The position numbers and the translations under genes were made by a program. The notes under the pieces were generated by a model. It was not told the origin of the DNA. It was given only the letters and a program-made list of their open reading frames with translations, and made no database searches. Below, piece after piece: positions 6,369-64,000 of a stretch of 64,000 bases of DNA. How positions within the stretch are numbered: position 1 is the first letter of the stretch; the number at the start of each line of letters is the position of its first letter. Origin of the DNA: Fictibacillus enclensis (GTDB taxonomy: Bacteria > Bacillota > Bacilli > Bacillales > Fictibacillaceae); the NCBI RefSeq assembly GCF_001457035.1, contig NZ_KQ758617.1:1178001-1242000 (forward strand). Direction: 5' to 3'.

Positions 6369-8723
6369 ATGGCAAAACGCAATAAAAAAACATCGAAAAA
6401 GACATCAGCCTGGAAAGAACAGCTGAGCTTTGAGCTCGCTGGCCTTCTTTTGCTTGCTTTAACATTGCTTGCCCTTGCCAAAATGGGGAAAGTCGGGCAG
6501 GCGTTTGTACAGTTTTTAAAATTTTTCAGCGGAGAATGGTACGGTGTACTGCTGATCGGAACCCTTGTTATTGCCATCTATCTGATTTGGAAGCGAAAAT
6601 CACCGCCCGTTTGGGGAAAACGCTTGGCAGGCTTTTATTTATTTTACATATCCATGCTGATTCTCAGTCATCTGAAATTGTTTTCTCTTCTTTCCAAGCA
6701 GGGAAAATGGTCGGATCCTTCCGTCATCCGAAACACCTGGGAGATATATTGGTCTCAGCTGTCGGGAAGTATACCGCAGGGAGATCTTGGCGGAGGCATG
6801 ATTGGAGCAGTGGGTTTTGCAATGTTCCATTTTCTGTTTGGTGTGCAAGGTTCTGCAGTCATCCTGGTTTTTGTTATGATCATTGCCATTATATTAATTA
6901 CCGGAAAGTCATTGTCAGGTGTCATCGCCAAATTGGCCGAAGCAGTCGGCAGCCTTTCTTCAACGGCCTATGAATCGTTTCAAAACAAACGGCAGGAACT
7001 GAAAGAAAACCGAAAAAAGGTACATAGACAAGCGCCCACAAGATCACAAGAGCCGGCTGAAGCCCATCAAGAAACCCGGACAATGGATGAAGAATACGAA
7101 CCCATTATCGAAGACTTCACAAGGAACGTTCATGATGATGAAAGTCCAGCGGTACAACTGAAATTTGGTTCCAAAGGCTTTCACGAAGAACCGGAGACTC
7201 AAACGGAAACCAGCCATGCCCCAACGGAAGATAAGCAGGACGGACTTCCTGCAAGCTTTGAACAGACAGAAGAAGAACATAACGAAAACTATTTGCTCCC
7301 TTCCATGGATTTGCTAGTCAGACCGACTTCCACTGGCCAGCATAAGGAACGGCAATATTCGGCGAGCAAAAGCAACGCAAAAAAACTCGAGAAAACCTTT
7401 GAAAGCTTTGGGGTAAAAGCAAGAGTGCTGAAGGTTCATCTTGGCCCGGCAGTAACGAAATATGAAGTGTATCCCGATGTAGGAGTAAAGGTAAGCAAAA
7501 TCGTCAACCTCGCCGATGATATCGCCCTGGCACTTGCCGCCAAAGATATCCGGATTGAAGCTCCTATTCCCGGCAAATCAGCGGTCGGTATTGAGGTTCC
7601 TAACCAGGAGGTAGCTACGGTTACGCTACGTGAAGTCCTTGAATCCAGTCAATATCAGAAACAAACCTCCAAACTTGCGATTGGGCTCGGAAGGGATATC
7701 TCGGGGGAACCTATTTTTGCCGAACTGTCCAGAATGCCTCACCTTCTGGTAGCCGGGGCAACAGGAAGCGGGAAAAGTGTTTGTATCAATGGCATCATTA
7801 CAAGCATATTGATGAGAGCCAAACCACATGAAGTGAAGATGATGATGATTGACCCGAAAATGGTTGAACTTAACGTGTATAACGGAGTTCCTCATCTCCT
7901 GGCTCCCGTCGTAACAGAGCCGAAAAAGGCAGCTCAGGCCCTGAAACGGGTGGTCAGTGAAATGGAACGCCGTTATGAATTGTTTTCCCACACAGGGACC
8001 CGGAATATTGAGGGGTACAATGAAGGCATACGCAGAGCTAACAATGAACGTGATGCGAAACAGCCGACCCTGCCTTATATTGTCGTGATTGTGGATGAGC
8101 TGGCAGATTTGATGATGGTGGCTTCAGGAGATGTAGAAGATGCCATTATCCGTCTTGCCCAGATGGCACGAGCGGCAGGAATTCATCTGATTATCGCAAC
8201 CCAGCGGCCTTCAGTGGATGTAATTACAGGGATTATTAAAGCCAATATCCCATCCCGGATTGCGTTTAGTGTTTCCTCTCAGACCGACTCGCGTACCATT
8301 CTTGATATGGGCGGCGCAGAAAAACTGCTGGGCCGCGGCGATATGCTCTTTTTCCCTTCAGGAACATCTAAACCTACAAGGGTGCAGGGAGCATTTCTAT
8401 CGGATCAGGAAGTGGAAAAAATTGTGGAATTCGTGATCGGGCAGCAGAAAGCGCAATACCAGAAAGACATGATTCCAACGGAAGAAGCGCAGGTGACGAT
8501 GGAAGTGGAGGATGACTTGTTCCCTGAAGCGGTAAAACTTGTGGTGGACATGCAGACGGCCTCGGTTTCCATGCTCCAGCGGCGATTTCGAATCGGCTAT
8601 TCACGGGCAGCCAGGCTGGTGGATGCCATGGAAGCAAAGGGAGTTATCGGTCCTTATGAGGGCAGCAAGCCAAGAGAAGTGCTGCTTACGTCTCTACCGG
8701 AACAAAACCAGGCATCAAGCTAA
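6369..8723 (+). CDS. spoIIIE: DNA translocase SpoIIIE/FtsK
   Basis: Hexameric septal DNA pump that moves the chromosome into the forespore. The 784-residue protein has four membrane segments within the first 190 residues, an acidic linker (about 210-320), a RecA-like motor with Walker A GATGSGKS (about 464-471) and Walker [13 protein letters not shown] (about 572-583), and a C-terminal winged-helix gamma domain (about 715-775) that reads orientation sequences. Length matches B. subtilis SpoIIIE. The start has AGAGGTG eight bases upstream. Confidence 0.96.
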
Positions 8724-8728
8724 AAAAC

Positions 8729-8758
8729 GGAACCCCAGAACGCGGGGTTCTTTTTTTT
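8729..8758 (+). terminator. Terminator after spoIIIE
   Basis: GAACCCC / GGGGTTC stem with eight T. Confidence 0.9.
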
Positions 8759-8881
8759 AACCTGCCTTTTCTGAATAATGTGTATATTCCCGTTTTAAAA
8801 AAATCTCAAAAAATAGTATTTATTTCTCATGCTAAAAATGATATATTAATGTCGATTATTTTATTTATTTGTCAAAAAAAT

Positions 8882-8910
8882 TTTACACTTGAAAAACACT
8901 ATATTATTAA
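8882..8910 (+). promoter_or_regulatory. Probable promoter of the GntR gene
   Basis: TTTACA and TATTAA at 17-base spacing in an AT-rich stretch about 35 bases before the GntR start. No clear operator palindrome was found by eye. Confidence 0.45.
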
Positions 8911-8943
8911 TGGTTTTGATTGTCTATCGAGGTGAGTAAAAAC

Positions 8944-9669
8944 GTGTCCATTAAGACGGATCATCGTCTGCTGTATTTAAAAGTCATTGAGAAATTGAAA
9001 GCCGACATCGAAAATGGCACTTATGAGGAAGGAGAAAAGCTTCCATCCGAATTTGAGCTGTCAAAGCAGTTGGGCATTAGCAGGGCAACATTACGAGAAG
9101 CGCTGCGCATCCTTGAAGACGAAAATATTCTGATCAGAAAACATGGTGTAGGAACCTTTGTTAGGACCAGAGCCCTATTTTCTTCCGGAATAGAAGAACT
9201 CTTCAGTGTAACTGAAATGATTGAACGGGCAGGCAAAAAGGCTGACACCGTCTTTATTTCGTCGGTGGTGGTCCCTGCTGTGGATGACCTGAAACATCAG
9301 TTTAAACTACCGCCGGACGGCGAAATCAATGTAGTGGAACGAGTGAGAACCGCTGACGGCGAGCCTGTTGTTTACTGCATTGACCAAATGCCGGCAGCGT
9401 TTATGCCTGCCGAATCACAGCATAAGTACCTTTCCATGCTCGAAATGCTTGAAAGAGAAGCCGGCAAGCGTGTTATGTATGCTGTTACAACGATTGAACC
9501 TCTCGGGTTTCATGAACGAATTTCAGAAATCCTGGAATGTCCCGAAGAAGCCTCGCTTCTTGTATTAAAGCAGATGCATTACGACCAGAATGATGAGCCG
9601 GTTTTATATTCCTGCAATTATTTTAGAGCCGATAAATTTAATTTCACAGTAGTCAGAAAACGATTATAG
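8944..9669 (+). CDS. ymfC: GntR/HutC-family transcriptional regulator, YmfC-like
   Basis: DNA-binding repressor with an N-terminal winged helix (about residues 15-75, including [15 protein letters not shown]) and a C-terminal UTRA ligand domain ending in a typical [10 protein letters not shown] element. 241 residues from the GTG at 8944, which has GAGGTGAG eight bases upstream; a TTG in frame at 8920 has no ribosome site. Lying directly before the nucleoside ABC operon in the same direction, it may sense a nucleoside or base and control that operon; this is inference from position. Confidence 0.85.
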
Positions 9670-9760
9670 TAAGTTTATCCTATATTGGGGGTGATGTGCT
9701 ACACCGTTTGCTCAATGTGTTAAGAGTGTTATCCGTATAAAAAATTAGGGGGAAAAACAA

Positions 9761-10831
9761 TTGAAAAAGAGAACCGGGGTTTTATTAAGTCTTGCATTAG
9801 CAGCTGGTACACTGCTTTCTGCCTGTGGGAAAGATGACGGCGGGGGATCAAATGCCGATGGTAAGAAGGATGCATTTAAGGTGGCCATGGTCACCGACAC
9901 TGGCGGTGTAGACGATAAGTCCTTTAACCAATCCGCTTGGGAAGGGCTCCAAAAGTTCGGCAAAGACAACAACATGAAAAAAGGGACAGACTTTAAATAT
10001 CTTCAATCCACGGCTGCTAGTGATTACGCTCCCAACATTAACTCATTAGTTCGCGATAACTACAAGCTTGTATACGGAATCGGATTCCTGATGCAGCAGG
10101 ATATTCAAAAAGTGGCCAAACAACAGCCAAAAGCACAGCTTGCTCTTGTTGACTCTGTTGTACCGGAAAAGAACGTGGCCAGCATCACATTCAAAGAGCA
10201 TGAAGGCTCTTTCCTTGTCGGTCTGATTGCGGGTATGCAGACAAAAACCAACAAAGTCGGATTCGTGGGCGGCGTGGACAGTGAATTGATCAAAAAGTTT
10301 GAAAATGGATTTAAAGCAGGTGTAAAAACAGCGAATCCAAAGGCTGAGATTTTTGTTCAATACGCCGGTGACTTCAACAAAGCAGAAAAAGGGCAAGCCA
10401 TTGCCAACACCTTCTACGGAAAAGGCGCTGATATCATCTATCATGCAGCTGGCGGAACCGGAAAAGGCGTATTTACAGAAGCAAAGAACCGTTCCAAAAA
10501 TGGCAAAAAGGTTTGGGTTATCGGAGTTGACCGTGACCAGCACGAAGAAGGAATGCCAGAAGATGTAACACTGACTTCCATGGTTAAGCGTGTGGACAAG
10601 GCGGTTGAAGAAGTTTCCAAGCAAACGATGGACGGAAAGTTTCCTGGCGGAAAAACAGTTGAATTCGGACTCGATCAAGACGGTGTGGGAATCGCCCCTC
10701 ATAAAGAGAATGTTTCAAAAGACGCTCTTGCCAAAGTCGATGAGTATAAAAAGAAAATACAGGACGGTGACATCACGGTCCCTAAGACAGACAAAGAGTA
10801 TAAGACATTTGAAGCTAACATGAAAAAGTAA
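9761..10831 (+). CDS. nupN: BMP-family nucleoside-binding lipoprotein, NupN-like
   Basis: Extracytoplasmic substrate-binding lipoprotein of a nucleoside ABC importer. A signal peptide with lipobox LLSAC places the lipidated cysteine at Cys22; the rest of the 356 residues is a BMP/Med fold with the opening motif VTDTGGVDDKSFNQS. Starts with TTG after AGGGGG. Followed by an ATPase and two permeases, the layout of B. subtilis nupNOPQ (yufNOPQ, guanosine uptake); there the operon is elsewhere on the chromosome. Substrate is inferred. Confidence 0.88.
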   Translation: MKKRTGVLLSLALAAGTLLSACGKDDGGGSNADGKKDAFKVAMVTDTGGVDDKSFNQSAWEGLQKFGKDNNMKKGTDFKYLQSTAASDYAPNINSLVRDNYKLVYGIGFLMQQDIQKVAKQQPKAQLALVDSVVPEKNVASITFKEHEGSFLVGLIAGMQTKTNKVGFVGGVDSELIKKFENGFKAGVKTANPKAEIFVQYAGDFNKAEKGQAIANTFYGKGADIIYHAAGGTGKGVFTEAKNRSKNGKKVWVIGVDRDQHEEGMPEDVTLTSMVKRVDKAVEEVSKQTMDGKFPGGKTVEFGLDQDGVGIAPHKENVSKDALAKVDEYKKKIQDGDITVPKTDKEYKTFEANMKK

Positions 10832-10842
10832 ATGCTAAAAAG

Positions 10843-10875
10843 TAAAGGCTGGTATTCGTTTACTGGCCTTTATTT
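10843..10875 (+). terminator. Intra-operon terminator after the binding protein gene
   Basis: TAAAGGCTGGTA / TACTGGCCTTTA stem (one G-T pair) with TTATTT tail between the lipoprotein and ATPase genes. Likely lets the binding protein be made in excess over the transporter. Confidence 0.75.
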
Positions 10876-10944
10876 ACGCCATAAAAGGTTAGACTTCTGA
10901 CTCCTAGAGAGACCAAGAATAAAAGTCATTGAGGGGTGAACTCG

Positions 10945-12483
10945 GTGGAATATGTTATTGAAATGAGAAACATACGCAAAGAATTTCCTGGAATTGTTGC
11001 CAACGACAATGTCACATTGCAGGTGAAAAAAGGTGAGATTCATGCGCTTTTGGGCGAAAACGGAGCTGGAAAATCAACCTTGATGAACGTGCTCTTCGGT
11101 TTGTATCAGCCAGAGCAGGGTGAAATTTATGTAAAAGGAAAACCCATTTCCATTACCGATCCGAATATCGCCAACCGGCTTGGAATCGGCATGGTGCATC
11201 AGCACTTTATGCTCGTTGAAAACTTTACTGTAACAGAAAATATTATACTAGGCAAAGAAATCACTACGGGAGGCCGTGTGGATTTGAAAAAGGCTGCCAA
11301 GGAAGTCAAGGCGCTTTCTGACCGTTATGGTTTATCGGTAGATCCAAACGCAAAGATTGAAAATATTTCGGTGGGTATGCAGCAGCGGGTGGAAATTTTG
11401 AAAACGTTGTATCGCGGAGCTGAAATTCTAATCTTTGACGAGCCAACAGCTGTACTCACGCCGCAGGAAATTCATGAATTGATGGAAATCATGAAAAAAC
11501 TCGTGGCCGAAGGGAAATCCATCATCCTTATCACGCATAAGCTTAAAGAAATTATGGAGGCATGCGACAGATGCACCGTCATCAGAAGGGGACGCGGCAT
11601 CGGCACCGTCGATGTGGCAGAGACGAATCCAGATAAGCTTGCGGCTATGATGGTAGGACGCGAAGTCAATTTTAAAGTGGACAAAACGGACGCTTCACCG
11701 AAGCAAACCGTTCTTAAGATCGAGAACCTCGTTGTAGAGGATGCGAGAAAAGTACCGGTTGTCGATGGCCTTAACCTGGAGATTAAAGCGGGTGAAATCC
11801 TCGGTATTGCAGGGGTTGACGGGAATGGTCAGACGGAGCTGTTAGAAGCCATTACAGGCCTAAGAAAAGTTGTCAGGGGAACCGTTGAGCTCAATGGTAA
11901 GAACATTACCAACCATAAGCCAAGAAAGGTTACAGAAGCAGGAGTTGGCCACATCCCGCAGGACCGGCATAAACACGGTCTCGTTCTGGATTTTTCCATT
12001 GGAACAAATATGGTTCTGCAAACGTACTATCAGCAGCCTTTTTCCAAACATAAAATTCTTAAATTTCCGGCGATTTTTGAGAAGGCCAATCAACTCATCA
12101 AAGAGTTTGACGTGCGAACGCCAAGTGAGCACACATTGGCCAGAGCGTTATCGGGAGGCAATCAGCAAAAAGCGATCATTGCCAGGGAAGTGGACAGAAG
12201 CCCCGACTTTTTGATTGCTGCCCAGCCGACCCGGGGCCTTGACGTCGGGGCGATCGAATTTATCCACTCAAAACTCATAGAGGAACGAGATAAAGGAAAA
12301 GCGGTGCTTCTGCTCTCCTTTGAACTTGATGAAGTCATGAATGTCAGTGACCGGATCGCTGTTATTTATGAAGGAAAAATTGTAGCCATCGTTGATCCGG
12401 AGGAAACGACGGAACAAGAGCTCGGACTGCTTATGGCAGGCGGGAAGAAACAAAAAGCAGGTGATCGTAGTGAATCTCATTAA
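10945..12483 (+). CDS. nupO: Nucleoside ABC transporter ATP-binding protein, NupO-like
   Basis: Fused double ATPase of RbsA/MglA type. Domain 1 has Walker A GENGAGKST (about 37-45), signature SVGMQQ and Walker B LIFDEPTAVL. Domain 2 has a divergent Walker A (GVDGNGQTE, no GKS/T), LSGGNQQK and LIAAQPTRGLDVG, as usual in this family. 512 residues from the GTG at 10945, eight bases after GAGGGG; another GTG at 10936 lies too close to that site. Overlaps the next gene by 14 bases. Confidence 0.92.
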   Translation: MEYVIEMRNIRKEFPGIVANDNVTLQVKKGEIHALLGENGAGKSTLMNVLFGLYQPEQGEIYVKGKPISITDPNIANRLGIGMVHQHFMLVENFTVTENIILGKEITTGGRVDLKKAAKEVKALSDRYGLSVDPNAKIENISVGMQQRVEILKTLYRGAEILIFDEPTAVLTPQEIHELMEIMKKLVAEGKSIILITHKLKEIMEACDRCTVIRRGRGIGTVDVAETNPDKLAAMMVGREVNFKVDKTDASPKQTVLKIENLVVEDARKVPVVDGLNLEIKAGEILGIAGVDGNGQTELLEAITGLRKVVRGTVELNGKNITNHKPRKVTEAGVGHIPQDRHKHGLVLDFSIGTNMVLQTYYQQPFSKHKILKFPAIFEKANQLIKEFDVRTPSEHTLARALSGGNQQKAIIAREVDRSPDFLIAAQPTRGLDVGAIEFIHSKLIEERDKGKAVLLLSFELDEVMNVSDRIAVIYEGKIVAIVDPEETTEQELGLLMAGGKKQKAGDRSESH

Positions 12484-13525
12484 AGGCCGTTTATTTCATA
12501 TTCTTGTACCCGTTGTTTCAGTTTTATTGGGGCTTTTGATCGGCGGCATAATCATGCTTGTCAGCAATTACAACCCGATTTCCGCCTATGCGGCGCTGAT
12601 CGACGGAATATTTGGAAATGGCTACAACCTGGGTGAAACCATTCGTGCGGCATCTCCGCTCATTTTATCGGGTCTCGCCGTTGCGTTTGCGTTCAGAACC
12701 GGCCTTTTTAACATCGGGGTTGAAGGGCAACTGCTTGTCGGCTGGCTCGCTTCGGTTTATGTAGGCATTCATTTTGATCTTCCCAAGGTGATTCATCTTC
12801 CTTTTGCCATTTTGGCAGGTGCAGCGGCGGGTGCACTATGGGGAGTCATTCCTGGTTTTTTGAAAGCGAAGTTTAAAGTACATGAAGTTATCACAACGAT
12901 CATGATGAATTATATTGCGCTCTATACAACCAACGGTATCATACGCGCCTACATGCTGGCGCCCGGCGAGCGGACAAAGGACATTAAAGAATCCGCATCC
13001 CTGGCTTCACCGTGGCTGCAGCAGCTTACCGAGTTTTCACGTCTTCACTATGGTATTGTGGTAGCCATTCTGGCTGCTGTTATCATGTGGTTCATTTTAT
13101 GGAAGACCACGACCGGATATGAATTAAGGGCCGTGGGCTTCAACCAGCATGCTTCACAATATGCAGGAATCAATGTGTCCAAGAACATCGTGCTCGCCAT
13201 GGCGATTTCCGGTGCATTTGCAGGTGCGGCAGGAACGATGGAAGGACTTGGAACCTATCAATACATGACCATTAATAATGCGTTTACAGGGGTTGGTTTT
13301 GACGGTATTGCGGTCTCCCTGCTTGGTGCCAATGGCTCTGTCGGAATTATTATTGCTGCCTTGTTGTTTGGAGGGCTAAAGATTGGATCGCTTACCATGC
13401 AATCCGCTGCAGGCGTGCCAACCGAACTCGTAGGAATTGTCATCGCACTTATCATTTTCTTTGTGGCGTCAAGCTACCTGATTCGATGGCTGACCAACCG
13501 ATTTACAAAAGGGGGTAAAATCTGA
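12470..13525 (+). CDS. nupP: Nucleoside ABC transporter permease, NupP-like
   Basis: Membrane permease of the BPD_transp_2 family: 351 residues, eight to ten hydrophobic segments, and conserved RTGLFNIGVEGQLLVG near residues 70-85. The GTG at 12470 preceded by GCAGGTG is chosen; the frame is open further upstream inside the ATPase gene but that part is not hydrophobic. Stop and the next start share one base. Confidence 0.9.
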   Translation: MNLIKGRLFHILVPVVSVLLGLLIGGIIMLVSNYNPISAYAALIDGIFGNGYNLGETIRAASPLILSGLAVAFAFRTGLFNIGVEGQLLVGWLASVYVGIHFDLPKVIHLPFAILAGAAAGALWGVIPGFLKAKFKVHEVITTIMMNYIALYTTNGIIRAYMLAPGERTKDIKESASLASPWLQQLTEFSRLHYGIVVAILAAVIMWFILWKTTTGYELRAVGFNQHASQYAGINVSKNIVLAMAISGAFAGAAGTMEGLGTYQYMTINNAFTGVGFDGIAVSLLGANGSVGIIIAALLFGGLKIGSLTMQSAAGVPTELVGIVIALIIFFVASSYLIRWLTNRFTKGGKI

Positions 13526-14487
13526 TGGATTTCTTTCAAATTCTTGCCCTTATCGTTCCGGCCGCGATCGTATCGGCAGCACCACTTATTCTAACAGCGC
13601 TTGGCGGAGTGCTCAGTGAACGTTCAGGCGTGGTAAACATTGGACTTGAAGGGCTGATGATGTTCGGTGCCTTTATCGGAGCTGTTTTTACCCATTATGG
13701 GGAACAGTGGGGACTTGGCGGTGGTTCTCCATGGATGAGTTTTGTGGTAGCTATTGTCGCCGGAGCGCTTTTTGCTGTTCCGCACGCGGTGGCCAGCATC
13801 TCGCTGAAAGCCGACCAGGTGGTCAGCGGTGTGGCGCTTAACTTTTTGGCCGCTGGACTCTCCATCTTTTTGACAAAGAAGCTGTTTGGAGCTGGCCAGA
13901 CGCCGGATATCCAGGAACGGATCGGAAAAGGTGATGTTCCGGTGCTGTCCAAGATCCCGGTGATCGGAGACCTGTTTTTCTCCAACGCATACTCAACATC
14001 ATTTGTTGCCGTGTTTCTTGCTTTTGTTGTGTGGTATATCATATATAAAACACCGTTCGGGCTTCGCCTCCGGTCTGTCGGGGAGCACCCTATGGCTGCA
14101 GACACCATGGGGATCAACGTGATCAAAACGCGTTACATTTCAGTAATCATGGGGGGAGCCTTTGCAGGACTCGGCGGAGCCATTTATGTGGCTTCCATCG
14201 CCGGGAACTTCACAGGTTCAACCATTTCCGGCCAAGGTTTCATGGCTCTTGCCGCCATGATCTTTGGGAAATGGCATCCGCTGGGTGCTATGGGTGCGGC
14301 TCTCTTTTTCGGTCTTGCCCAAAGCTTGAGTATTACAGGGGAACAAATCCCGCTCCTGAAAGATATCCCTGATGTGTATCTTCTGATTTTGCCTTATGTA
14401 CTGACCATTCTTGCCCTTGCCGGGTTTGTCGGCAGAGCGGATGCACCAAAAGCATCCGGACAGCCTTACGAAAAAGGCAAACGATAA
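13525..14487 (+). CDS. nupQ: Nucleoside ABC transporter permease, NupQ-like
   Basis: Second permease of the importer, 320 residues and almost wholly hydrophobic, with the family motif ERSGVVNIGLEGLMMFGA near residues 32-49. It overlaps the preceding permease by a single base and ends the operon before a terminator. Confidence 0.9.
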   Translation: MDFFQILALIVPAAIVSAAPLILTALGGVLSERSGVVNIGLEGLMMFGAFIGAVFTHYGEQWGLGGGSPWMSFVVAIVAGALFAVPHAVASISLKADQVVSGVALNFLAAGLSIFLTKKLFGAGQTPDIQERIGKGDVPVLSKIPVIGDLFFSNAYSTSFVAVFLAFVVWYIIYKTPFGLRLRSVGEHPMAADTMGINVIKTRYISVIMGGAFAGLGGAIYVASIAGNFTGSTISGQGFMALAAMIFGKWHPLGAMGAALFFGLAQSLSITGEQIPLLKDIPDVYLLILPYVLTILALAGFVGRADAPKASGQPYEKGKR

Positions 14488-14492
14488 GAACC

Positions 14493-14530
14493 AGAGCCTG
14501 TTTCCCCTCGGGGATCAGGCTCTTTATTTC
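14493..14530 (+). terminator. Terminator of the nup operon
   Basis: AGAGCCTG / CAGGCTCT with an internal CCCC/GGGG extension and a T-rich tail. Confidence 0.88.
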
Positions 14531-14616
14531 TTCTACAGGCAGGAAAAGTCATGTTTGCTATGGAAAGTGGGTACACTAGAAAGTATGATTCATATTCATA
14601 AAAGGGAGGAACCGAA

Positions 14617-15897
14617 ATGACACTTGTAGACCATCACGTGGCGGATATGCCCGGAATGACCTTACATACGATCGAAACTACCAAATATAAAACCACTTCT
14701 TTAATCCTGCAAATTAAAAGCCCGATTACAGAAGAAGAAGTAACCAAAAGGGCCTTGCTTCCCTATGTGCTGCAAAGCGGCACAGAACGCTATCCGAGCA
14801 GCAAAGAGCTTCGTGGGGCACTCGATGGTCTTTACGGGGCTACACTCGGGGTGGATCTTTCTAAAAAAGGTGAATACCAGATCATCACCCTGAGAATGGA
14901 TGTGGCGAATGAAAAGTTTTTGAGTGACAACACGCCTTTGCTTGACCGGGCGTTTGAATTGCTTTCCCAGGTTCTTCTGAAGCCGGCCAAACAAGGTGAA
15001 GGGTTCCTGCCCAGGATTGTTCAAAAGGAAAAGCGGTCGTTAAAACAGCAGATTGAATCGATTTATGACGATAAAATGAGGTATGCCAACAAGCGCCTGA
15101 TTGAAGAAATGTTTGATGAGGAACCGTACCGCTTTAATGTGTACGGCAATGAGCAGGAAGTGGATTCGATTACGCCCGAAACACTGTATGACTATTATAT
15201 AAAAGTCATGAAAGAAGATGAAATTCATCTTTATGCGGTCGGTGATGTTTCTAGGAATGCACTGCAGGAATTGGCCAAAAAACATTTTGTGTTTCCGCAA
15301 GACAGAATGGAACCGAAACGAACATCTCCAACAGGCAAGCAAAGGGTGGACGAAGTAAAGGAAGTTTTCGAAGAACAGGAAGTGCAGCAAGGAAAGCTGC
15401 ATATGGGTTATCGAACTTATATTACTTACAGCGATCCGGAATACCTTGCCCTTCAGGTATTCAACGGGGTGTTCGGCGGATTTTCACATTCCAAGCTGTT
15501 TATGAACGTGCGTGAAAAAGAGAGCCTCGCGTATTATGCTGCTTCGCGGTTTGAAAGCCATAAAGGCATCATTTTTGTGATGTCCGGCATTGAGACCAAA
15601 AATTATGAAAAAACCGTGAAGATCATCAATGAACAGCTTGAGGAAATCCGAAACGGCAACATTACCGATGGGGAACTCGAACAGACGAAAGCCATGATCA
15701 GAAACCAAATCCTTGAAACCGTTGATGATTCAACAGGCCTGGTGGAGGTTCTTTATCATGAAGTGGTTTCCCGCCACAAACGAACCATTGAGGAATGGCT
15801 CGAAGGCATCCAGAATGTCACAAAGGAACAAGTCAGGGATGTATCCCAAAAGATTCAGCTCGATACCATTTATTTCTTAAAAGGGAGGGGAGAATGA
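14617..15897 (+). CDS. ymfF: M16 peptidase-like protein YmfF (no zinc motif)
   Basis: 426 residues with the M16 (insulinase/processing peptidase) fold. The region where active members carry HXXEH reads LLPYVLQSGTERYPS, so the zinc site is missing. Its downstream partner YmfH keeps the motif, so the two probably act as a non-catalytic/catalytic pair, as proposed for other two-gene M16B enzymes. Ends in a four-base overlap with ymfH. Start ATG follows GGGAGG. Confidence 0.87.
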   Translation: MTLVDHHVADMPGMTLHTIETTKYKTTSLILQIKSPITEEEVTKRALLPYVLQSGTERYPSSKELRGALDGLYGATLGVDLSKKGEYQIITLRMDVANEKFLSDNTPLLDRAFELLSQVLLKPAKQGEGFLPRIVQKEKRSLKQQIESIYDDKMRYANKRLIEEMFDEEPYRFNVYGNEQEVDSITPETLYDYYIKVMKEDEIHLYAVGDVSRNALQELAKKHFVFPQDRMEPKRTSPTGKQRVDEVKEVFEEQEVQQGKLHMGYRTYITYSDPEYLALQVFNGVFGGFSHSKLFMNVREKESLAYYAASRFESHKGIIFVMSGIETKNYEKTVKIINEQLEEIRNGNITDGELEQTKAMIRNQILETVDDSTGLVEVLYHEVVSRHKRTIEEWLEGIQNVTKEQVRDVSQKIQLDTIYFLKGRGE

Positions 15898-17186
15898 TGG
15901 AACAAATCCATTTTAACCAGCTTAAAGAAACATTGAACCACAAAACACTTCCGAACGGCCTGAAAGTATATATCCTTGAGAAAAAGGATTTTAACAAAAC
16001 TTATGCCACTTTTACGACCCACTATGGTTCAGTGGACAACCACTTTGTCCCGCTTGGGAAAGAGGAAAAAGTGAAAGTTCCGGATGGTATTGCCCATTTT
16101 CTTGAGCATAAGCTTTTTGAGAAGGAACATGGAGACGTTTTTCAGGACTTTAGTAAGCAGGGAGCATCCGCGAACGCGTTTACCACGTTTAACCGTACCG
16201 CCTACTTATTTTCAACGACCGGCGACGTGGAGAAAAACCTGACCACCCTTATTGATTTTGTTCAGGCTCCGTATTTTACAGAAAAAACGGTGGAAAAGGA
16301 AAAAGGCATAATTGGCCAGGAAATCAGGATGTATGATGATAATCCGGACTGGCGCGTGTACTTTGGCCTGATCGCGAATATGTACAAAAATCATCCTGTG
16401 GCTATTGATATCGCAGGAACGGTGGAATCCATTGCGAAAATCACGAAGGATGATCTGTACGAATGCTACAATACCTTTTATCATCCGAGCAACATGCTCC
16501 TCTTTATTGTCGGCCCGATTGATGCAGAAAAAATTATGGGTCTTGTGGAAAAGAACCAGGCGGGCAAGGATTATAATGATCAGCCGCCGATCGAGCGATT
16601 TTTTGATGAGGAACCGGCTGAACCCGCCAACAGAAAAGAAGTGCTCCACATGCCAGTGCAAACGCCAAAGTGCTATATGGGCTATAAGGAGAAGCGCCCG
16701 CAGCGAAGCGGGAAGGACCTTCTTGTCCGTGAATTGTCCATTAACCTTTTATTGGAGATAATGTTTGGCAAAAGCACCAAGAATTACGAGAAGCTGTATG
16801 AAGAAGGCCTGATTGATCCTTCCTTTTCGTTTGATTATACCGAAGAGATGGGATTTGGTTTTTCCATGATCGGCGGGGATACAACCGATCCGGATACGTT
16901 TGCGCAGCGTATTTCCGAAATGGTGAATGAATTCAAACAGAAGACGCTGAATGAAGAAGATCTTGAACGGGCGAGGAAAAAGAAAATTGGTTCGTTTCTG
17001 AGAGCGCTGAATTCTCCTGAATTTATTGCCAACCAGTTTACCCGGTATGAATTTAATGAGATGAACCTTTTTGATGTGATTCCTACTTTTGAGGAACTGA
17101 CCGTCAAACAGCTTCAGGACGCGTTAAACGACCATTTCGAGGAAAGTCAGCTGACCGTTTGCCAGGTAAAGAAGAAACAGTCATAA
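15894..17186 (+). CDS. ymfH: M16 zinc peptidase YmfH
   Basis: 430 residues, M16 family with intact inverted zinc motif HFLEH (residues about 65-69) and the second metal-site glutamate expected roughly 76 residues later. Ribosome site GGGAGGGG; the start is ATG at 15894 (ATGA overlap with ymfF) or the adjacent ATG at 15897. Cytosolic by lack of a signal peptide. Substrate unknown. Confidence 0.9.
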   Translation: MMEQIHFNQLKETLNHKTLPNGLKVYILEKKDFNKTYATFTTHYGSVDNHFVPLGKEEKVKVPDGIAHFLEHKLFEKEHGDVFQDFSKQGASANAFTTFNRTAYLFSTTGDVEKNLTTLIDFVQAPYFTEKTVEKEKGIIGQEIRMYDDNPDWRVYFGLIANMYKNHPVAIDIAGTVESIAKITKDDLYECYNTFYHPSNMLLFIVGPIDAEKIMGLVEKNQAGKDYNDQPPIERFFDEEPAEPANRKEVLHMPVQTPKCYMGYKEKRPQRSGKDLLVRELSINLLLEIMFGKSTKNYEKLYEEGLIDPSFSFDYTEEMGFGFSMIGGDTTDPDTFAQRISEMVNEFKQKTLNEEDLERARKKKIGSFLRALNSPEFIANQFTRYEFNEMNLFDVIPTFEELTVKQLQDALNDHFEESQLTVCQVKKKQS

Positions 17187-59809: not shown

Positions 59810-60187
59810 ATGGAAACAGAGAGAGCGCGAAAGAAAGGGAAGAAGATTAGCCTCATCCTTTTAAGCCTGTTCTTAGTTGGGCTAATTGCTGTAATCATTT
59901 TTAATTTTTCACGTCCCACTGGGGATGAATTGGTGAATAAGTTTGAGGCTGCAGTAAATCAAGGAGATATTGGTTCGTTAAAAGACATTGTAGAGAGCAA
60001 GGATGGTGTTACGATTACAAAGGACAACCTAAAGCAGTTAACGGTTTATGCAAAAGATGAACCTGATTATTTAAAAGTACAGGTGTTTTTAATGAAAGCG
60101 CAAACAGCAATTGAGGAAAAAGACGAAGAGGCTAAATCGCGAAATCCACTCTTTGAAAGGGCCACTAAAGGAGAACCTTTGGATTAA
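59810..60187 (+). CDS. Membrane-anchored protein, TcaA/YvbJ N-terminal-like
   Basis: 125 residues: a basic start (ERARKKGKK), one membrane segment (about 14-34), then an extracytoplasmic helical part (DELVNKFEAAVNQGDIGSLK) that resembles the first repeat of TcaA/YvbJ wall-associated proteins. Those proteins are much longer, so this is either a short relative or a truncated copy. Strong AAAGGAGG site. Confidence 0.6.
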   Translation: METERARKKGKKISLILLSLFLVGLIAVIIFNFSRPTGDELVNKFEAAVNQGDIGSLKDIVESKDGVTITKDNLKQLTVYAKDEPDYLKVQVFLMKAQTAIEEKDEEAKSRNPLFERATKGEPLD

Positions 60188-60250: not shown

Positions 60251-60880
60251 TCATAAAAAGTTTCTTTGATAATAATAACATTTTCTTCTTAGAGGACAGT
60301 TGAGGCATTTTGGAACTGGGGAACAAACTTCCCTACCGAAATCTAACAAAGCAAAGTTATACCGTCTGAAATTTTTTTTTGGCGTTATTTGTTCAGCGAA
60401 ATTAAAAAATCCTTTGTCTGTATATAATCTTGAGCTTTTTTCAAATCCAAAAAATCTGGTATACACCCTAATTACATTACCATCTATGATTGTGTCTCTC
60501 ATATTAAGGTGCATAGATCTAATGGCAGCTGCAGTGTAATTTCCCACGCCTTTAATTTCTAAAAAGTGAGCCTTTTCATTAAGGATTTTCTTTTTTTGTA
60601 ATGTCCAGGCGATTTGTTCAATTATTTTTTCTCTTTCAGGTAGACCAAGATTTTTAAAGGTATTTGGATTTTCAACATTTAAATAGCTTTCTGGAGTGGG
60701 ATATAATTTAGTGAATTTAATAAATTCTTTTTCAACGACATTGGCTCTTGTTCTTTGCAACATAATTTCAGCTACCATAACATGCCATAAATTTTTAGTA
60801 GTCCTCCAAGTAAACTCATAAATGTTTTCTTTACTCCATTCTAAAATCTTTCTCCTAAAGTATTCAATATTTTGGTTCAC
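60251..60880 (-). CDS. HhH-GPD mismatch glycosylase, MIG/TDG type
   Basis: 209 residues of the MutY/EndoIII superfamily without the C-terminal NUDIX-like domain of MutY. Conserved Glu38 (AEIMLQRT), helix-hairpin-helix GVGNYTAAA (111-119) and catalytic Asp133 (IIDGNVIRV). The hairpin carries tyrosine (Tyr115) where MutY has Ser and EndoIII has Lys; that tyrosine marks the thymine-DNA glycosylase Mig of Methanothermobacter. Iron-sulfur cysteines 186, 192, 195 and 201 are spaced C-X5-C-X2-C-X5-C, one shorter than usual. GTG start after AGGAGGGG. Divergent from a C5 methyltransferase, so it probably repairs T:G mismatches made by 5-methylcytosine deamination. Confidence 0.82.
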   Translation of the reverse strand: MNQNIEYFRRKILEWSKENIYEFTWRTTKNLWHVMVAEIMLQRTRANVVEKEFIKFTKLYPTPESYLNVENPNTFKNLGLPEREKIIEQIAWTLQKKKILNEKAHFLEIKGVGNYTAAAIRSMHLNMRDTIIDGNVIRVYTRFFGFEKSSRLYTDKGFFNFAEQITPKKNFRRYNFALLDFGREVCSPVPKCLNCPLRRKCYYYQRNFL

Positions 60881-60983
60881 ATTCTCCCCTCCTTGTAATT
60901 ATTTCCTCCTCAATATTCTGGTTTAGAAAAAACTTTATTAAAACATTTTTATCGAAAAATATTTATATAGCACTAAGTTTATA

Positions 60984-61012
60984 TTACAATATTCCTACAA
61001 GAAATATATGTA
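60984..61012 (+). promoter_or_regulatory. Possible methyltransferase promoter
   Basis: TTACAA and TATGTA at 17 bases in the 198-base AT-rich divergent region. Weak match; several other AT-rich hexamers exist. Confidence 0.3.
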
Positions 61013-61078
61013 AAAATAATTTCACCTTTAAATGCAGTAATAAAGACGGAATTTTTTTATTAATAAAGGAGTTATACC

Positions 61079-62683
61079 ATGCAAGTAGTTGATTTTTTCT
61101 GTGGAGCAGGCGGCTTTTCTGAAGGATTTGAACAAGCTGGCTTCAAAGTTGTTAAAGCGTTTGATATTTGGGAACCAGCTATTAGAACACACAATATGAA
61201 CCATTCCTCCTCTGGTAAAGTTGTAGCCGAAAATAGAAATGTCCTTGAAATAGCAGCACTGCCAGATGAAGAGTTTCATAAAGTTGTACCGGATAGCGAA
61301 GTTATCATAGGGTCTCCTCCTTGTGTAGCATTTTCAAGCTCCAATAAATCGGGTAAAGCAGATAAGACTCTTGGAATCCAATTGTTAAAAGCGTTTTTTA
61401 AAATAGTTGCGCGAAAAAAATTCAAGAAAAATAGTTTATTGAAGTATTGGGTAATGGAGAATGTATCAAACGTCCAATATTATGTTGAAAAAGAGTATAC
61501 AATGGAAGACTTAGGAATCACTACACTAGGAGATAAAAAGTTAAAAGTAATTCACGAAAACTCTAAAGTTTACGAGTTGCAATATTATGGAGTTCCTTCT
61601 AATAGAAAAAGGTTTATATGTGGTGAATTTCCTGATTTTAATAAGACTTTAAGTAAAGGTATACCCCTTAAGAAGGTTCTAGAGTCGTTAGGAACACCTT
61701 ATGAATATTTAAATTCAAATATCGTTGATCCAAATTATTTACTAGAACTGAAGGGATTAGAAGTTACTGATCATCATTACAAAAAGCTTCTTGCTGATTT
61801 TGAATGGAAGAAGGCAGAAATTCGAAAAAGAGATAAAGGCTACATGGGAAAAATGTCTTTTCCTGAAGATATTTCTAAACCAGCAAGAACAATAATGGCT
61901 ACTATGTCCCATTCATCAAGAGAAGCTATGATTTTTTCAGATAAGCAAGGGGAATATAGATCCCCTACCATTAGAGAAGTTGCGACAATTATGTCGTTTC
62001 CCATAGATTATCGATTTTATGGAGAATCAGATTCTATAAAATATAAGTTAGTTGGTAATGCAGTACCCCCTAAATTTGCAAACACAATTGCTCAAGCAAT
62101 AATGCGTGATGTTAAACAAAATTATGTACCTCCAGCTTATAGGAAAAAAGTATTTTCAAGTGATTCAAATTTTACAAATTTAAACTTCAGAAAATTTTCG
62201 GTTAAAGAAGAAAAACAAAAACCTTACTCAACGAAATTTAAATATCATGTTCCATATTTGATAATTAACAGTTTTAGAGTGGAGTTATCGAATAAATTTA
62301 ATCAAAATAAGGACAAAGTCAGCTGGAATGTAGTCATCCATAGGGGTCAGGGTAAAAACGCAGAAAAATATGAAAATATACCATTAACAAAAAATCATTT
62401 TATGAATGTTGAAATCAATAAAATGGAGACATTTATCAGTACTCATGTAAAGACAATTAGCTCTATAGATAACCTGCAACAAAATTATTGTCTACCTTCT
62501 AATCAACGAGCAAATTTGATTGGGCCGGAAGAATTATTACAAGCAGTAAGAGAATTTATTGATGAACATTTTAATAACGAGAGCAAAATAGTTGTAGAAA
62601 ATATGACTAGAGAAATCCCTCTAAAAATTGCTGCATCTTTTTACATTTTATTCAACATCATAGGGAGGTTAAAAAATGATTGA
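61079..62683 (+). CDS. C5-cytosine DNA methyltransferase with C-terminal extension
   Basis: 534 residues. All main motifs are present: I DFFCGAGG (5-12), IV GSPPC with catalytic Cys82, VI ENV (127-129), VIII Q168 and GVPSNRKR, IX ARTIMATM (269-276), X GNAVPP (326-331). The target-recognition region (about 181-265) is short. Residues 350-534 form an extension outside the methyltransferase core (contains HVPYLIINSFRVEL and WNVVIHRGQGKNAEKYE); its fold is not known to me. AAAGGAG before the ATG. Overlaps the next gene by eight bases. Confidence 0.93.
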   Translation: MQVVDFFCGAGGFSEGFEQAGFKVVKAFDIWEPAIRTHNMNHSSSGKVVAENRNVLEIAALPDEEFHKVVPDSEVIIGSPPCVAFSSSNKSGKADKTLGIQLLKAFFKIVARKKFKKNSLLKYWVMENVSNVQYYVEKEYTMEDLGITTLGDKKLKVIHENSKVYELQYYGVPSNRKRFICGEFPDFNKTLSKGIPLKKVLESLGTPYEYLNSNIVDPNYLLELKGLEVTDHHYKKLLADFEWKKAEIRKRDKGYMGKMSFPEDISKPARTIMATMSHSSREAMIFSDKQGEYRSPTIREVATIMSFPIDYRFYGESDSIKYKLVGNAVPPKFANTIAQAIMRDVKQNYVPPAYRKKVFSSDSNFTNLNFRKFSVKEEKQKPYSTKFKYHVPYLIINSFRVELSNKFNQNKDKVSWNVVIHRGQGKNAEKYENIPLTKNHFMNVEINKMETFISTHVKTISSIDNLQQNYCLPSNQRANLIGPEELLQAVREFIDEHFNNESKIVVENMTREIPLKIAASFYILFNIIGRLKND

Positions 62684-64000
62684 AACAATACTAAAGGAAA
62701 AGTTAAGGATAGAAAAACTAAAGGAAATAAAAAAAACTGAAACACCAATAATGACTGGCGTCCGTATTCCTTACAAAGGTGAAGATAAAGAGTTTGATGT
62801 ATATAGAATTCCTTTAAGATACCTTGTTTATAATCCTTACAATGGTAGAATTGGTACAAAAGTTAGAACGTTCGAAGTAAACTCTCACAAATTAAATCCG
62901 GAAGATGAAGAAGATGTTAAAATAATTGAAAAATATTTGTGGGATTCAAAAATCGATAGAAATAAAAAGACTATGGAAAGTCTAATTAAATATAAACAAA
63001 AAGAATATGGAATTGTTTCAAGAAACGGATATATTATTGATGGTAATAGAAGAGCATCTCTTCTAAATGAAATTTTCAGAAAAAGAAATACTAAATATAA
63101 AAATCACGACGTGAGTCATTGTGAATTTTTTAATGCCATAATATTGGATGACGATGCTGACAAGAAGGAAATCTTACGTCTTGAAACAACTTATCAAATG
63201 GGAATGGATGAAAAATTAGACTATAATGCTACAGAGAAATATTTAAAGTGTAAGCAATTATTAGATGAGGGATATACTACTAAAGATATCGCTGAAATGA
63301 TGGATGAAAAAGAAAGTACAATAAAAAAGAACTTAGAAATATTAAAGTTAATGGATGAATACCTCGAATACTATGATTATAAAGATATGTACTCTATGTT
63401 AGAAAAAAGAGAAGGGCAATTTGTAGATTTAAGTAGATTTGTTAAAAGCTATGAAGAAAAATCGGGTAATGCCCATACAAACTGGGACCCAGATTTAACA
63501 GATATAACGGAAATGGTAAGTATTTGCTTTGATTACATTAGAGCACAGTACGAAGGAAAAGAATTTAGAAACATTGCTCAAAATTCTAGAAGCTCGATTC
63601 CGAAAGGTTTTTTTGCAAATAAAACTATCTGGGAAGATTTTAAGAAAAAGCATGAAAACTTTATTGATGAAATTGAGGAAGAACCAGTTACAGCATATAC
63701 AGACACTAAGGACGGCAGTAAGGATATTAGTACTATATTAGCGGAAAGAGATGATGTATGGACTAATCGTGTCATTAATAAACTTACAGAAAATATGAAT
63801 AAATCGAAAAGAAGACTTGAAGATACCCAGGCTGCTGACAAACCGGCAGTCTTGTTAAAAAATGCCATTGATGCTATCGAACTAATCGATACCAACCAAG
63901 AGACTTTTTATACTAGTGAAGTAATAAACCTTGTAAATCAAATAAATAGTATCTGTTGGGATTATAAAAAAATTATCCAAAAGGAATTGAGGAAAAATGG
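62676..64000 (+). CDS. ParB/Srx-like DNA-binding protein (cut by window end)
   Basis: At least 441 residues, no stop before the window ends. Residues 53-59 read NPYNGRI and 122-126 DGNRR, the ParB/sulfiredoxin-type nuclease or NTP-binding core; a helix-turn-helix follows (about 199-226, TTKDIAEMMDEKESTIKKNL). The rest is long, charged and helical. GGGAGG seven bases upstream; starts inside the methyltransferase gene, so translation is coupled. Not a partition gene by context (no ParA beside it); probably a component of the modification system. Confidence 0.75.
   Translation, partial: MIETILKEKLRIEKLKEIKKTETPIMTGVRIPYKGEDKEFDVYRIPLRYLVYNPYNGRIGTKVRTFEVNSHKLNPEDEEDVKIIEKYLWDSKIDRNKKTMESLIKYKQKEYGIVSRNGYIIDGNRRASLLNEIFRKRNTKYKNHDVSHCEFFNAIILDDDADKKEILRLETTYQMGMDEKLDYNATEKYLKCKQLLDEGYTTKDIAEMMDEKESTIKKNLEILKLMDEYLEYYDYKDMYSMLEKREGQFVDLSRFVKSYEEKSGNAHTNWDPDLTDITEMVSICFDYIRAQYEGKEFRNIAQNSRSSIPKGFFANKTIWEDFKKKHENFIDEIEEEPVTAYTDTKDGSKDISTILAERDDVWTNRVINKLTENMNKSKRRLEDTQAADKPAVLLKNAIDAIELIDTNQETFYTSEVINLVNQINSICWDYKKIIQKELRKN

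What the first reader, a model, noticed from the sequence alone, without database searches (positions are those of the whole stretch)
60251..64000. Candidate DNA-modification system: T:G glycosylase, C5 methyltransferase and ParB/Srx protein
A MIG-type glycosylase is divergent from a C5 methyltransferase, which overlaps a large ParB/Srx-HTH gene by eight bases. All three frames are intact while most of the island around them is broken, which suggests they are kept by selection. A thymine glycosylase beside a C5 methyltransferase is known from the Methanothermobacter plasmid R-M system, but a coupled ParB/Srx protein in place of a restriction enzyme is not a standard R-M layout I know. An effector is expected beyond the window.
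Basis: partly seen in the sequence, partly recalled or inferred. Interest (0 to 1): 0.8.

Follow-up and report, generated by a model that had tools for sequence, protein, structure and literature searches.

The report
Methylation-linked defence operon with ParB-like protein
These genes look like part of a widespread, apparently unnamed bacterial defence system that marks its own DNA by cytosine methylation and probably attacks other DNA with a ParB-like protein, a DNA motor and a nuclease, here together with an enzyme that repairs the damage such methylation causes.

Summary
Observation confirmed: MIG-type glycosylase (60251-60880, -), C5 methyltransferase (61079-62683, +) and ParB-like gene (62676, ending 4 bases past the window), all intact. 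The operon continues with an SNF2 ATPase and a wHTH/NOV_C PD-(D/E)XK nuclease gene (overlaps 8, 8, 29 bases). MTase-ParB-SNF2-effector is a recurring unit: of 45 non-redundant full-context ParB-anchored loci, 44 have the MTase, 45 SNF2, 40 a NOV-family effector, and 4 of the other 5 a MutH-type nuclease; one Pedobacter copy has TIR instead of NOV_C. The predicted ParB fold matches Spo0J/Noc/KorB. The glycosylase has MIG-type, not MutY-type, residues, shares the operon's low GC and sits beside the genome's only detected C5 MTase; no Vsr was detected there. Relatives carry Vsr (17 of 45), or neither; MIG only here. Best reading: an ATP-driven restriction-modification-like system with exchangeable effectors, MIG replacing Vsr. 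I found no description of it in the profile libraries and papers searched. No activity is tested.

The parts
60251..60880 (-). MIG-type HhH-GPD glycosylase, 209 aa, predicted T:G (deaminated 5mC) repair companion
   Evidence: PF00730 1.5e-6; best solved relative 1kea, a G-T mismatch repair enzyme, 1.7e-26; F27, E42, R47, A50, Y126, D144 as in Mig, F at the L187 position
60881..61078 (.). 198-bp divergent intergenic region with ribosome-binding sites for both genes
   Evidence: sequence read; promoter-like matches in the 7.4-kb stretch are no more frequent than in shuffles
61079..62683 (+). C5 cytosine methyltransferase, 534 aa, with a conserved C-terminal tail (about residues 350-534) of unknown role
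   Evidence: PF00145 3.6e-36; alignment of 19 relatives; tail profile hits 41 ORFs of the loci, three of them copies of the window's own
62676..64000 (+). ParB-like protein, 442 aa (gene ends at window-equivalent 64004 = G000:C1:1242004)
63997..64000 (+). start of the SNF2-family ATPase gene, 652 aa (window-equivalent 63997-65955 = G000:C1:1241997-1243955). The effector gene follows wholly outside the window: G000:C1:1243927-1244841, 304 aa, wHTH-like N-terminal part plus NOV_C nuclease domain

Best explanation
Five genes act as a restriction-modification-like defence system with its own mutation-repair enzyme. The C5 methyltransferase marks a host sequence. The ParB-like protein (ParB N-domain plus HTH) binds DNA and, using a nucleotide as Spo0J/Noc/KorB do, clamps on or slides; with the SNF2 ATPase as motor it delivers the effector (wHTH adaptor plus PD-(D/E)XK nuclease) to DNA that lacks the mark, which is cut. 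The MIG-type glycosylase removes thymine from T:G mismatches left when the methylated cytosine deaminates, the job that Vsr would do in many relatives. Shown here: gene content, overlaps, conservation, predicted folds, MIG-type residues, effector-domain swaps. Inferred: every catalytic step, that lack of methylation is the trigger, nucleotide use by ParB, and the order of action.
For: Operon anatomy: overlaps of 8, 8 and 29 bases; a 16-nt inverted repeat beginning 2 nt past the effector gene; all five genes at 27-32% GC against 36.5-38% for the next three genes and 43% for the window. Conservation: 45 non-redundant full-context loci: MTase 44, SNF2 45, NOV-family effector 40; the five without it are L006, L064, L068, L069 (MutH-type gene) and L007. 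Nuclease: PF13020 in 20 of 21 aligned effectors; PD-(D/E)XK-like motif in 69 of 74 (misses: the TIR copy and 4 short or cut ORFs); fold match. Effector swap: L021 keeps the N-terminal domain (2.6e-28) but has TIR_2 (1.3e-12). ParB fold. Repair role: MIG residues go with a C5 MTase neighbour, 12 of 14 against 0 of 32 MutY-type (Fisher 2.3e-9; 6 of the 14 were hand-picked plasmid loci); in the genomes alone, 7 of 8, window included. One relative is a single MTase-glycosylase ORF (L134). The genome has one detected C5 MTase and no detected Vsr. The PADLOC model that the glycosylase matches is an R-M one, type II nicking endonuclease, 1.1e-26.
Confidence: 0.66

Rival explanations
1. The ParB-SNF2-effector trio is a defence device of its own (abortive infection or anti-plasmid) that travels with modification genes but does not read the C5 mark; the MTase is a separate self-marking or addiction module.
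For: ParB-SNF2 pairs occur with type III R-M genes in Lactococcus and Enterococcus plasmids and without an annotated MTase; one effector has TIR, a domain common in abortive effectors (recalled); 10 of 45 loci have another REase-like gene.
Against: In the family of the window the MTase is present in 44 of 45 loci, and here it is part of the same string of overlapping genes.
Confidence: 0.2
2. An ordinary type II-like R-M system: MTase plus NOV_C endonuclease, with ParB and SNF2 as accessory or regulatory genes.
For: MTase and a PD-(D/E)XK nuclease domain are both present; a repair gene beside a C5 MTase is known from type II R-M (pFV1 has mig near an NgoPII-family system).
Against: SNF2 is present in 45 of 45 loci (ParB is present by design of the search). 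The effector type changes (NOV_C, MutH, TIR) while ParB and SNF2 stay, which fits ParB-SNF2 as the core.
Confidence: 0.14
3. The glycosylase is an antiviral effector that attacks modified bases in phage DNA, as reported for Brig1, rather than a repair enzyme.
For: DNA glycosylases with antiviral roles are in print (PMC11078745, search listing and start of abstract only); the gene lies among defence genes.
Against: MIG-type residues track C5 MTase neighbours (12 of 14 against 0 of 32); the best solved relative is a G-T mismatch repair enzyme; other members of the operon family have Vsr (17 of 45).
Confidence: 0.08

Closest known systems
Mig.MthI and the pFV1 R-M locus of Methanothermobacter (L129)
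   Same: MIG-type glycosylase near a C5 MTase; 1kea is the best solved match
   Different: pFV1 has an NgoPII-family REase and no ParB, SNF2 or NOV_C gene is annotated in the stretch fetched (its hypothetical proteins were not scanned); the window protein has F for L187
Vsr-linked C5 R-M systems
   Same: a T:G repair gene travels with a C5 MTase; 17 of 45 loci of this operon family carry Vsr
   Different: a glycosylase instead of a mismatch nickase; none of the other 84 ParB-anchored loci shows a MIG-like ORF in the flanks held
DISARM and other MTase plus SNF2-type systems (composition recalled)
   Same: C5 MTase plus SNF2-like ATPase; partial DrmMII and DrmD profile matches
   Different: no DrmB or DrmC match in the rows shown; ParB and NOV_C genes instead
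SNF2-DUF3883 fusions in R-M operons (Ava_2192 context)
   Same: SNF2 helicase linked to DUF3883 (= NOV_C), called a novel REase domain (PMC3710099, passages)
   Different: separate genes here, plus ParB and C5 MTase; the paper's operon has a HEPN-AAA protein
ParB-family clamps Spo0J, Noc, KorB
   Same: predicted fold of about residues 40-322
   Different: PF02195 not hit, no ParA-like gene seen in the operon, extra C-terminal helical part, operon with MTase and nuclease
ParB-SNF2 with type III R-M (Lactococcus and Enterococcus plasmids; L007, L173)
   Same: ParB-helicase pair beside modification genes
   Different: 25% identity to the window ParB (L007); site-specific DNA methyltransferase and type III endonuclease annotated; no NOV-family gene in L007
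TmtA and PDC-S36 (PADLOC)
   Same: share the NOV_C-type stretch with the effector (6.2e-11 and 1.9e-6)
   Different: the TmtA match covers only the last 117 of 1538 profile positions; whole-protein architecture differs

Membership tests
MIG-type T:G glycosylase | HhH-GPD fold, single domain without a MutY C-terminal domain | tested here: met
   PF00730 1.5e-6, 209 aa
MIG-type T:G glycosylase | A50 in place of MutY V45 | tested here: met
   residue roles from PMC2714593 abstract and passages
MIG-type T:G glycosylase | L187 in place of MutY Q182 | tested here: inconclusive
   not Q, but F rather than L
MIG-type T:G glycosylase | excises T opposite G | not testable with these tools
   needs an enzyme assay
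MutY | V45 and Q182, C-terminal domain, place in the MutY clade | tested here: not met
   A and F; 209 aa; outside the MutY clade, support 100/99
C5 cytosine methyltransferase | PF00145 with PC, ENV and GNxV motifs | tested here: met
ParB (Spo0J/Noc/KorB) | ParB N-domain plus HTH fold | tested here: met
   on a predicted model:
ParB (Spo0J/Noc/KorB) | PF02195 sequence family | tested here: not met
   no PF02195 among families matched by 24 members at E 0.05; PF02195 search of the own genome finds two other loci only
ParB (Spo0J/Noc/KorB) | CTP binding and clamp closure | not testable with these tools
   DGNRR is invariant in 24 members; binding not shown
Type II R-M | MTase plus REase of one specificity | tested here: inconclusive
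   a nuclease domain is present, specificity unknown; no REx gene in the window's locus
DISARM | DrmA, DrmB, DrmC set (recalled) | tested here: not met
   no DrmB or DrmC match in the rows shown for 8 proteins, best 25 of 46 shown for the MTase; a DrmA match of 2e-4 only, to the SNF2 protein's helicase region

The most novel reading that the evidence does not exclude
A distinct class of restriction system in which a ParB-type nucleotide-gated clamp, not a type I/III specificity or Res subunit, surveys DNA for the methyl mark and hands it to an SNF2 motor and an exchangeable effector (NOV_C nuclease, MutH nuclease or TIR), found by record title in Bacillota, Bacteroidota, Chloroflexota, Pseudomonadota and Patescibacteria, with Vsr and MIG as interchangeable repair companions.
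Probability: 0.42. Interest if true: 0.82.

Novelty: new variant of a known kind. Interest (0 to 1): 0.62.

Why it matters
If right, a clamp of the chromosome-segregation type has been recruited to tell self from foreign DNA, which would tie ParB biochemistry to restriction and give a testable model for how methylation is sensed at a distance. The effector swaps would make it a modular defence platform. The exchange of Vsr for a glycosylase would show that the mutational cost of 5-methylcytosine draws in a repair partner by two unrelated routes, inside one operon family.

Tried and rejected
Glycosylase as a stray MutY: rejected. The genome has a separate MutY-type gene at G000:C4:28261 with L, Q, V, Y, Q at the test positions, and the window gene differs.

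A conserved glycosylase-MTase-ParB trio: rejected, 1 of 45. None of the other 84 ParB-anchored loci shows a MIG-like ORF, but 33 of the 85 have short flanks, where one could be missed.

MTase tail as a hidden relative of the REx nuclease: no similarity by hhalign.

ParB by sequence alone: single-protein scans of viral contigs found no relative for ParB or the glycosylase. The ParB profile against PDB gave 0.26 at best, an unrelated chain; the effector profile gave nothing at E 1. For the effector, Foldseek gave no match better than 0.05; the nuclease assignment rests on PF13020, the motif and VIA-align. A profile comparison with one of the genome's own ParBs was not significant (probability 0.8%).

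Empty site in relatives: matches to the right flank are scattered over several places in same-genus genomes; no clean junction was obtained. Rfam: no match at gathering score in 9 kb. PHROGs: matches only for the SNF2 protein, the two best being DNA helicases. Promoter and terminator scans: not above shuffles.

Literature searches whose listings showed no description of the operon: (two returned no paper).

Count limits: the 14 MIG-type rows include 6 plasmid loci picked by hand from 75 records. Of the 47 places I read 42 with context: MIG-type 7 of 8 (window included; L135 is the miss), MutY-type 0 of 32, Nth-type 0 of 2. The five not read are G083, G206, G247, G192, G082. In the other count, 33 of 85 loci with short flanks were dropped before the 52, and merging at 90% ParB identity gave 45.
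Full report
Observation. The three frames are present and intact at the stated coordinates: glycosylase 60251-60880 (-), C5 MTase 61079-62683 (+), ParB-like from 62676 (+). The window is G000:C1:1178001-1242000 of a 4.5-Mb genome. The stretch to the right was fetched (window position = L002 position + 56000).

Gene order. After ParB (L002 6676-8004) come an SNF2-family ATPase (7997-9955, 652 aa) and a 304-aa protein (9927-10841) with NOV_C; then, after 427 bp, an AspBHI-family methyl-directed REase (11269-12531), an McrB-like gene (12626-15643) and an McrC-like gene (15612-16682). The overlaps MTase/ParB, ParB/SNF2 and SNF2/effector are 8, 8 and 29 bases. A 16-nt inverted repeat begins 2 nt past the effector gene (10843-10881). 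GC is 0.31 for MIG and 0.32, 0.30, 0.30, 0.27 for the four operon genes, against 0.38, 0.365, 0.37 for AspBHI-like, McrB and McrC and 0.43 for the window. I read this as one acquired cassette of five genes, MIG included, followed by separate genes.

Conservation. A profile of four ParB proteins found 68 loci in genome contigs and 13 in viral contigs, by record title in Bacillota, Bacteroidota, Chloroflexota, Pseudomonadota, Patescibacteria and others. With L002, L005, L006 and L007 that makes 85 loci. The search was anchored on ParB, so the other genes were not selected for. Within 6 kb of ParB in all 85: MTase 79, SNF2 81, NOV family 74, MutH-type 6, REx 39, Vsr 26, AspBHI-like 3, MIG 1. In the 52 loci with at least 4 kb on the left and 5.5 kb on the right: MTase 51, SNF2 52, NOV 47, MutH-type 5, Vsr 19, REx 16, AspBHI-like 3, MIG 1. 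Merged at 90% ParB identity to 45: MTase 44, SNF2 45, NOV 40, MutH-type 5, Vsr 17, REx 10, AspBHI-like 3, MIG 1; one locus (L038) has both NOV-family and MutH-type genes. The five full-context loci without a NOV-family gene are L006, L064, L068 and L069, which have a MutH-type gene (PF02976 in the three scanned: L006, L064, L068), and L007, which lies beside annotated type III R-M genes. Streptococcus phage Javan191 carries the unit with a REase-like gene. The gene is patchy: among 60 relatives only the window's own genome has it, and 6 of 398 genomes sampled across the phylum do, the own one included, three of them at 31% identity or less.

SNF2. The profile of 14 members matches CHD1L, ISWI, Snf2 and an archaeal Snf2/Rad54 helicase among others (best 1.1e-22), so an ATP-driven DNA motor is likely.

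MTase. It has the C5 motifs. Of 36 full-context loci without REx, 30 have an MTase of 530 aa or more (the other 6 include L007, which has none), against 0 of 16 with REx. The tail of the long form is conserved and shows no similarity to REx.

Glycosylase. The best PDB match is 1kea, a G-T mismatch repair enzyme, 1.7e-26, ahead of MutY chains (1.1e-23 and weaker). NCBIfam's closest model is mutY, at 126 bits against a cut-off of 286.5. PMC2714593 (abstract and passages) names V45 and Q182 as MutY determinants and A50 and L187 in Mig.MthI, discusses F27, R47 and Y126, and notes that Tyr is also present in a Bacillus MutY, so Y126 does not tell the two apart. The window protein has F27, R47, A50 and Y126, with F at 187; the genome's own MutY-type protein has L, Q, V, Y, Q. 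Of 48 glycosylases examined, 14 have A at 50 and neither Q nor E at 187; 12 of these have a C5 MTase within about 1.6 kb, overlapping, or in the same ORF (L127 and L135 do not), against 0 of 32 MutY-type and 0 of 2 Nth-type. Six of the 14 were hand-picked plasmid loci; within the genome search alone it is 7 of 8, window included. L134 holds both domains in one 593-aa ORF (PF00145 and PF00730). The tree separates MutY (100/99) from the rest; the MIG-type rows do not form one clade, and the window row is long. The genome has one PF00145 match and no Vsr match.

Mechanism. The simplest reading is a modification-guided, ATP-driven attack system: the MTase marks self, ParB and SNF2 survey and move on DNA, the effector cuts (or, in the TIR form, may kill the cell), and MIG limits the mutational cost of the mark. 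That lack of the mark is the trigger is inferred from the near-constant MTase and is the weakest step: ParB-SNF2 pairs exist beside type III genes and without an annotated MTase (that gene table is incomplete).

Relation to what is known. In PADLOC 2.0.0 and NCBIfam 20.0 the ParB-like protein has no useful match (best 0.006 in PADLOC, none in NCBIfam); the effector matches only the end of TmtA (6.2e-11) and PDC-S36 (1.9e-6) in PADLOC and nothing in NCBIfam; the SNF2 protein matches other helicases far below their NCBIfam cut-offs. PMC3710099 (passages) calls DUF3883 a novel REase domain fused to SNF2 in R-M operons, so the nuclease assignment itself is not new. The passages I saw of PMC10853773, PMC12839542, PMC8011034, PMC10609329, PMC10952713, PMC4260502, PMC3459991 and PMC6098607 do not describe this unit. 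Eight searches listed no paper that I recognised as describing it; most subscription papers are not held, and REBASE was not searched. I therefore call it a new variant of R-M-type systems, with the bolder reading in the section on the most novel reading.

A side puzzle. AspBHI-like genes lie next to this operon in 3 of 45 loci (L002, L014, L016). With McrB-like and McrC-like genes next door too, the host's own 5mC should lie in a context that these enzymes ignore, which would limit the MTase's possible site.

Noticed in passing
L002:11269-16682 (window-equivalent 67269-72682): An AspBHI-family 5mC-directed REase gene and McrB-like and McrC-like genes lie intact beside the genome's only detected C5 MTase; AspBHI-like genes also follow this operon in L014 and L016.
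   Followed up: partly
L021:13226-14278 (Pedobacter planticolens): Effector with the usual N-terminal domain but a TIR domain in place of the NOV_C nuclease.
   Followed up: partly
L134:305-2086 (G191): Single ORF of 593 aa joining a C5 methyltransferase and a MIG-type glycosylase.
   Followed up: partly
L125 and L126 (haloarchaeal plasmids): MIG-type glycosylase near a C5 MTase whose gene overlaps an ATP-binding protein gene; possibly another system with MIG.
   Followed up: no
L174 (Enterococcus faecalis plasmid pQZ076-2): ParB-like and helicase pair preceded by a large protein annotated as sigma factor-like HTH, with no annotated methyltransferase in the stretch.
   Followed up: no
window 59810-60187 and L002:18190-18774: A short TcaA-like ORF on the left and a type I restriction R-subunit fragment on the right lie near the cassette.
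   Followed up: partly
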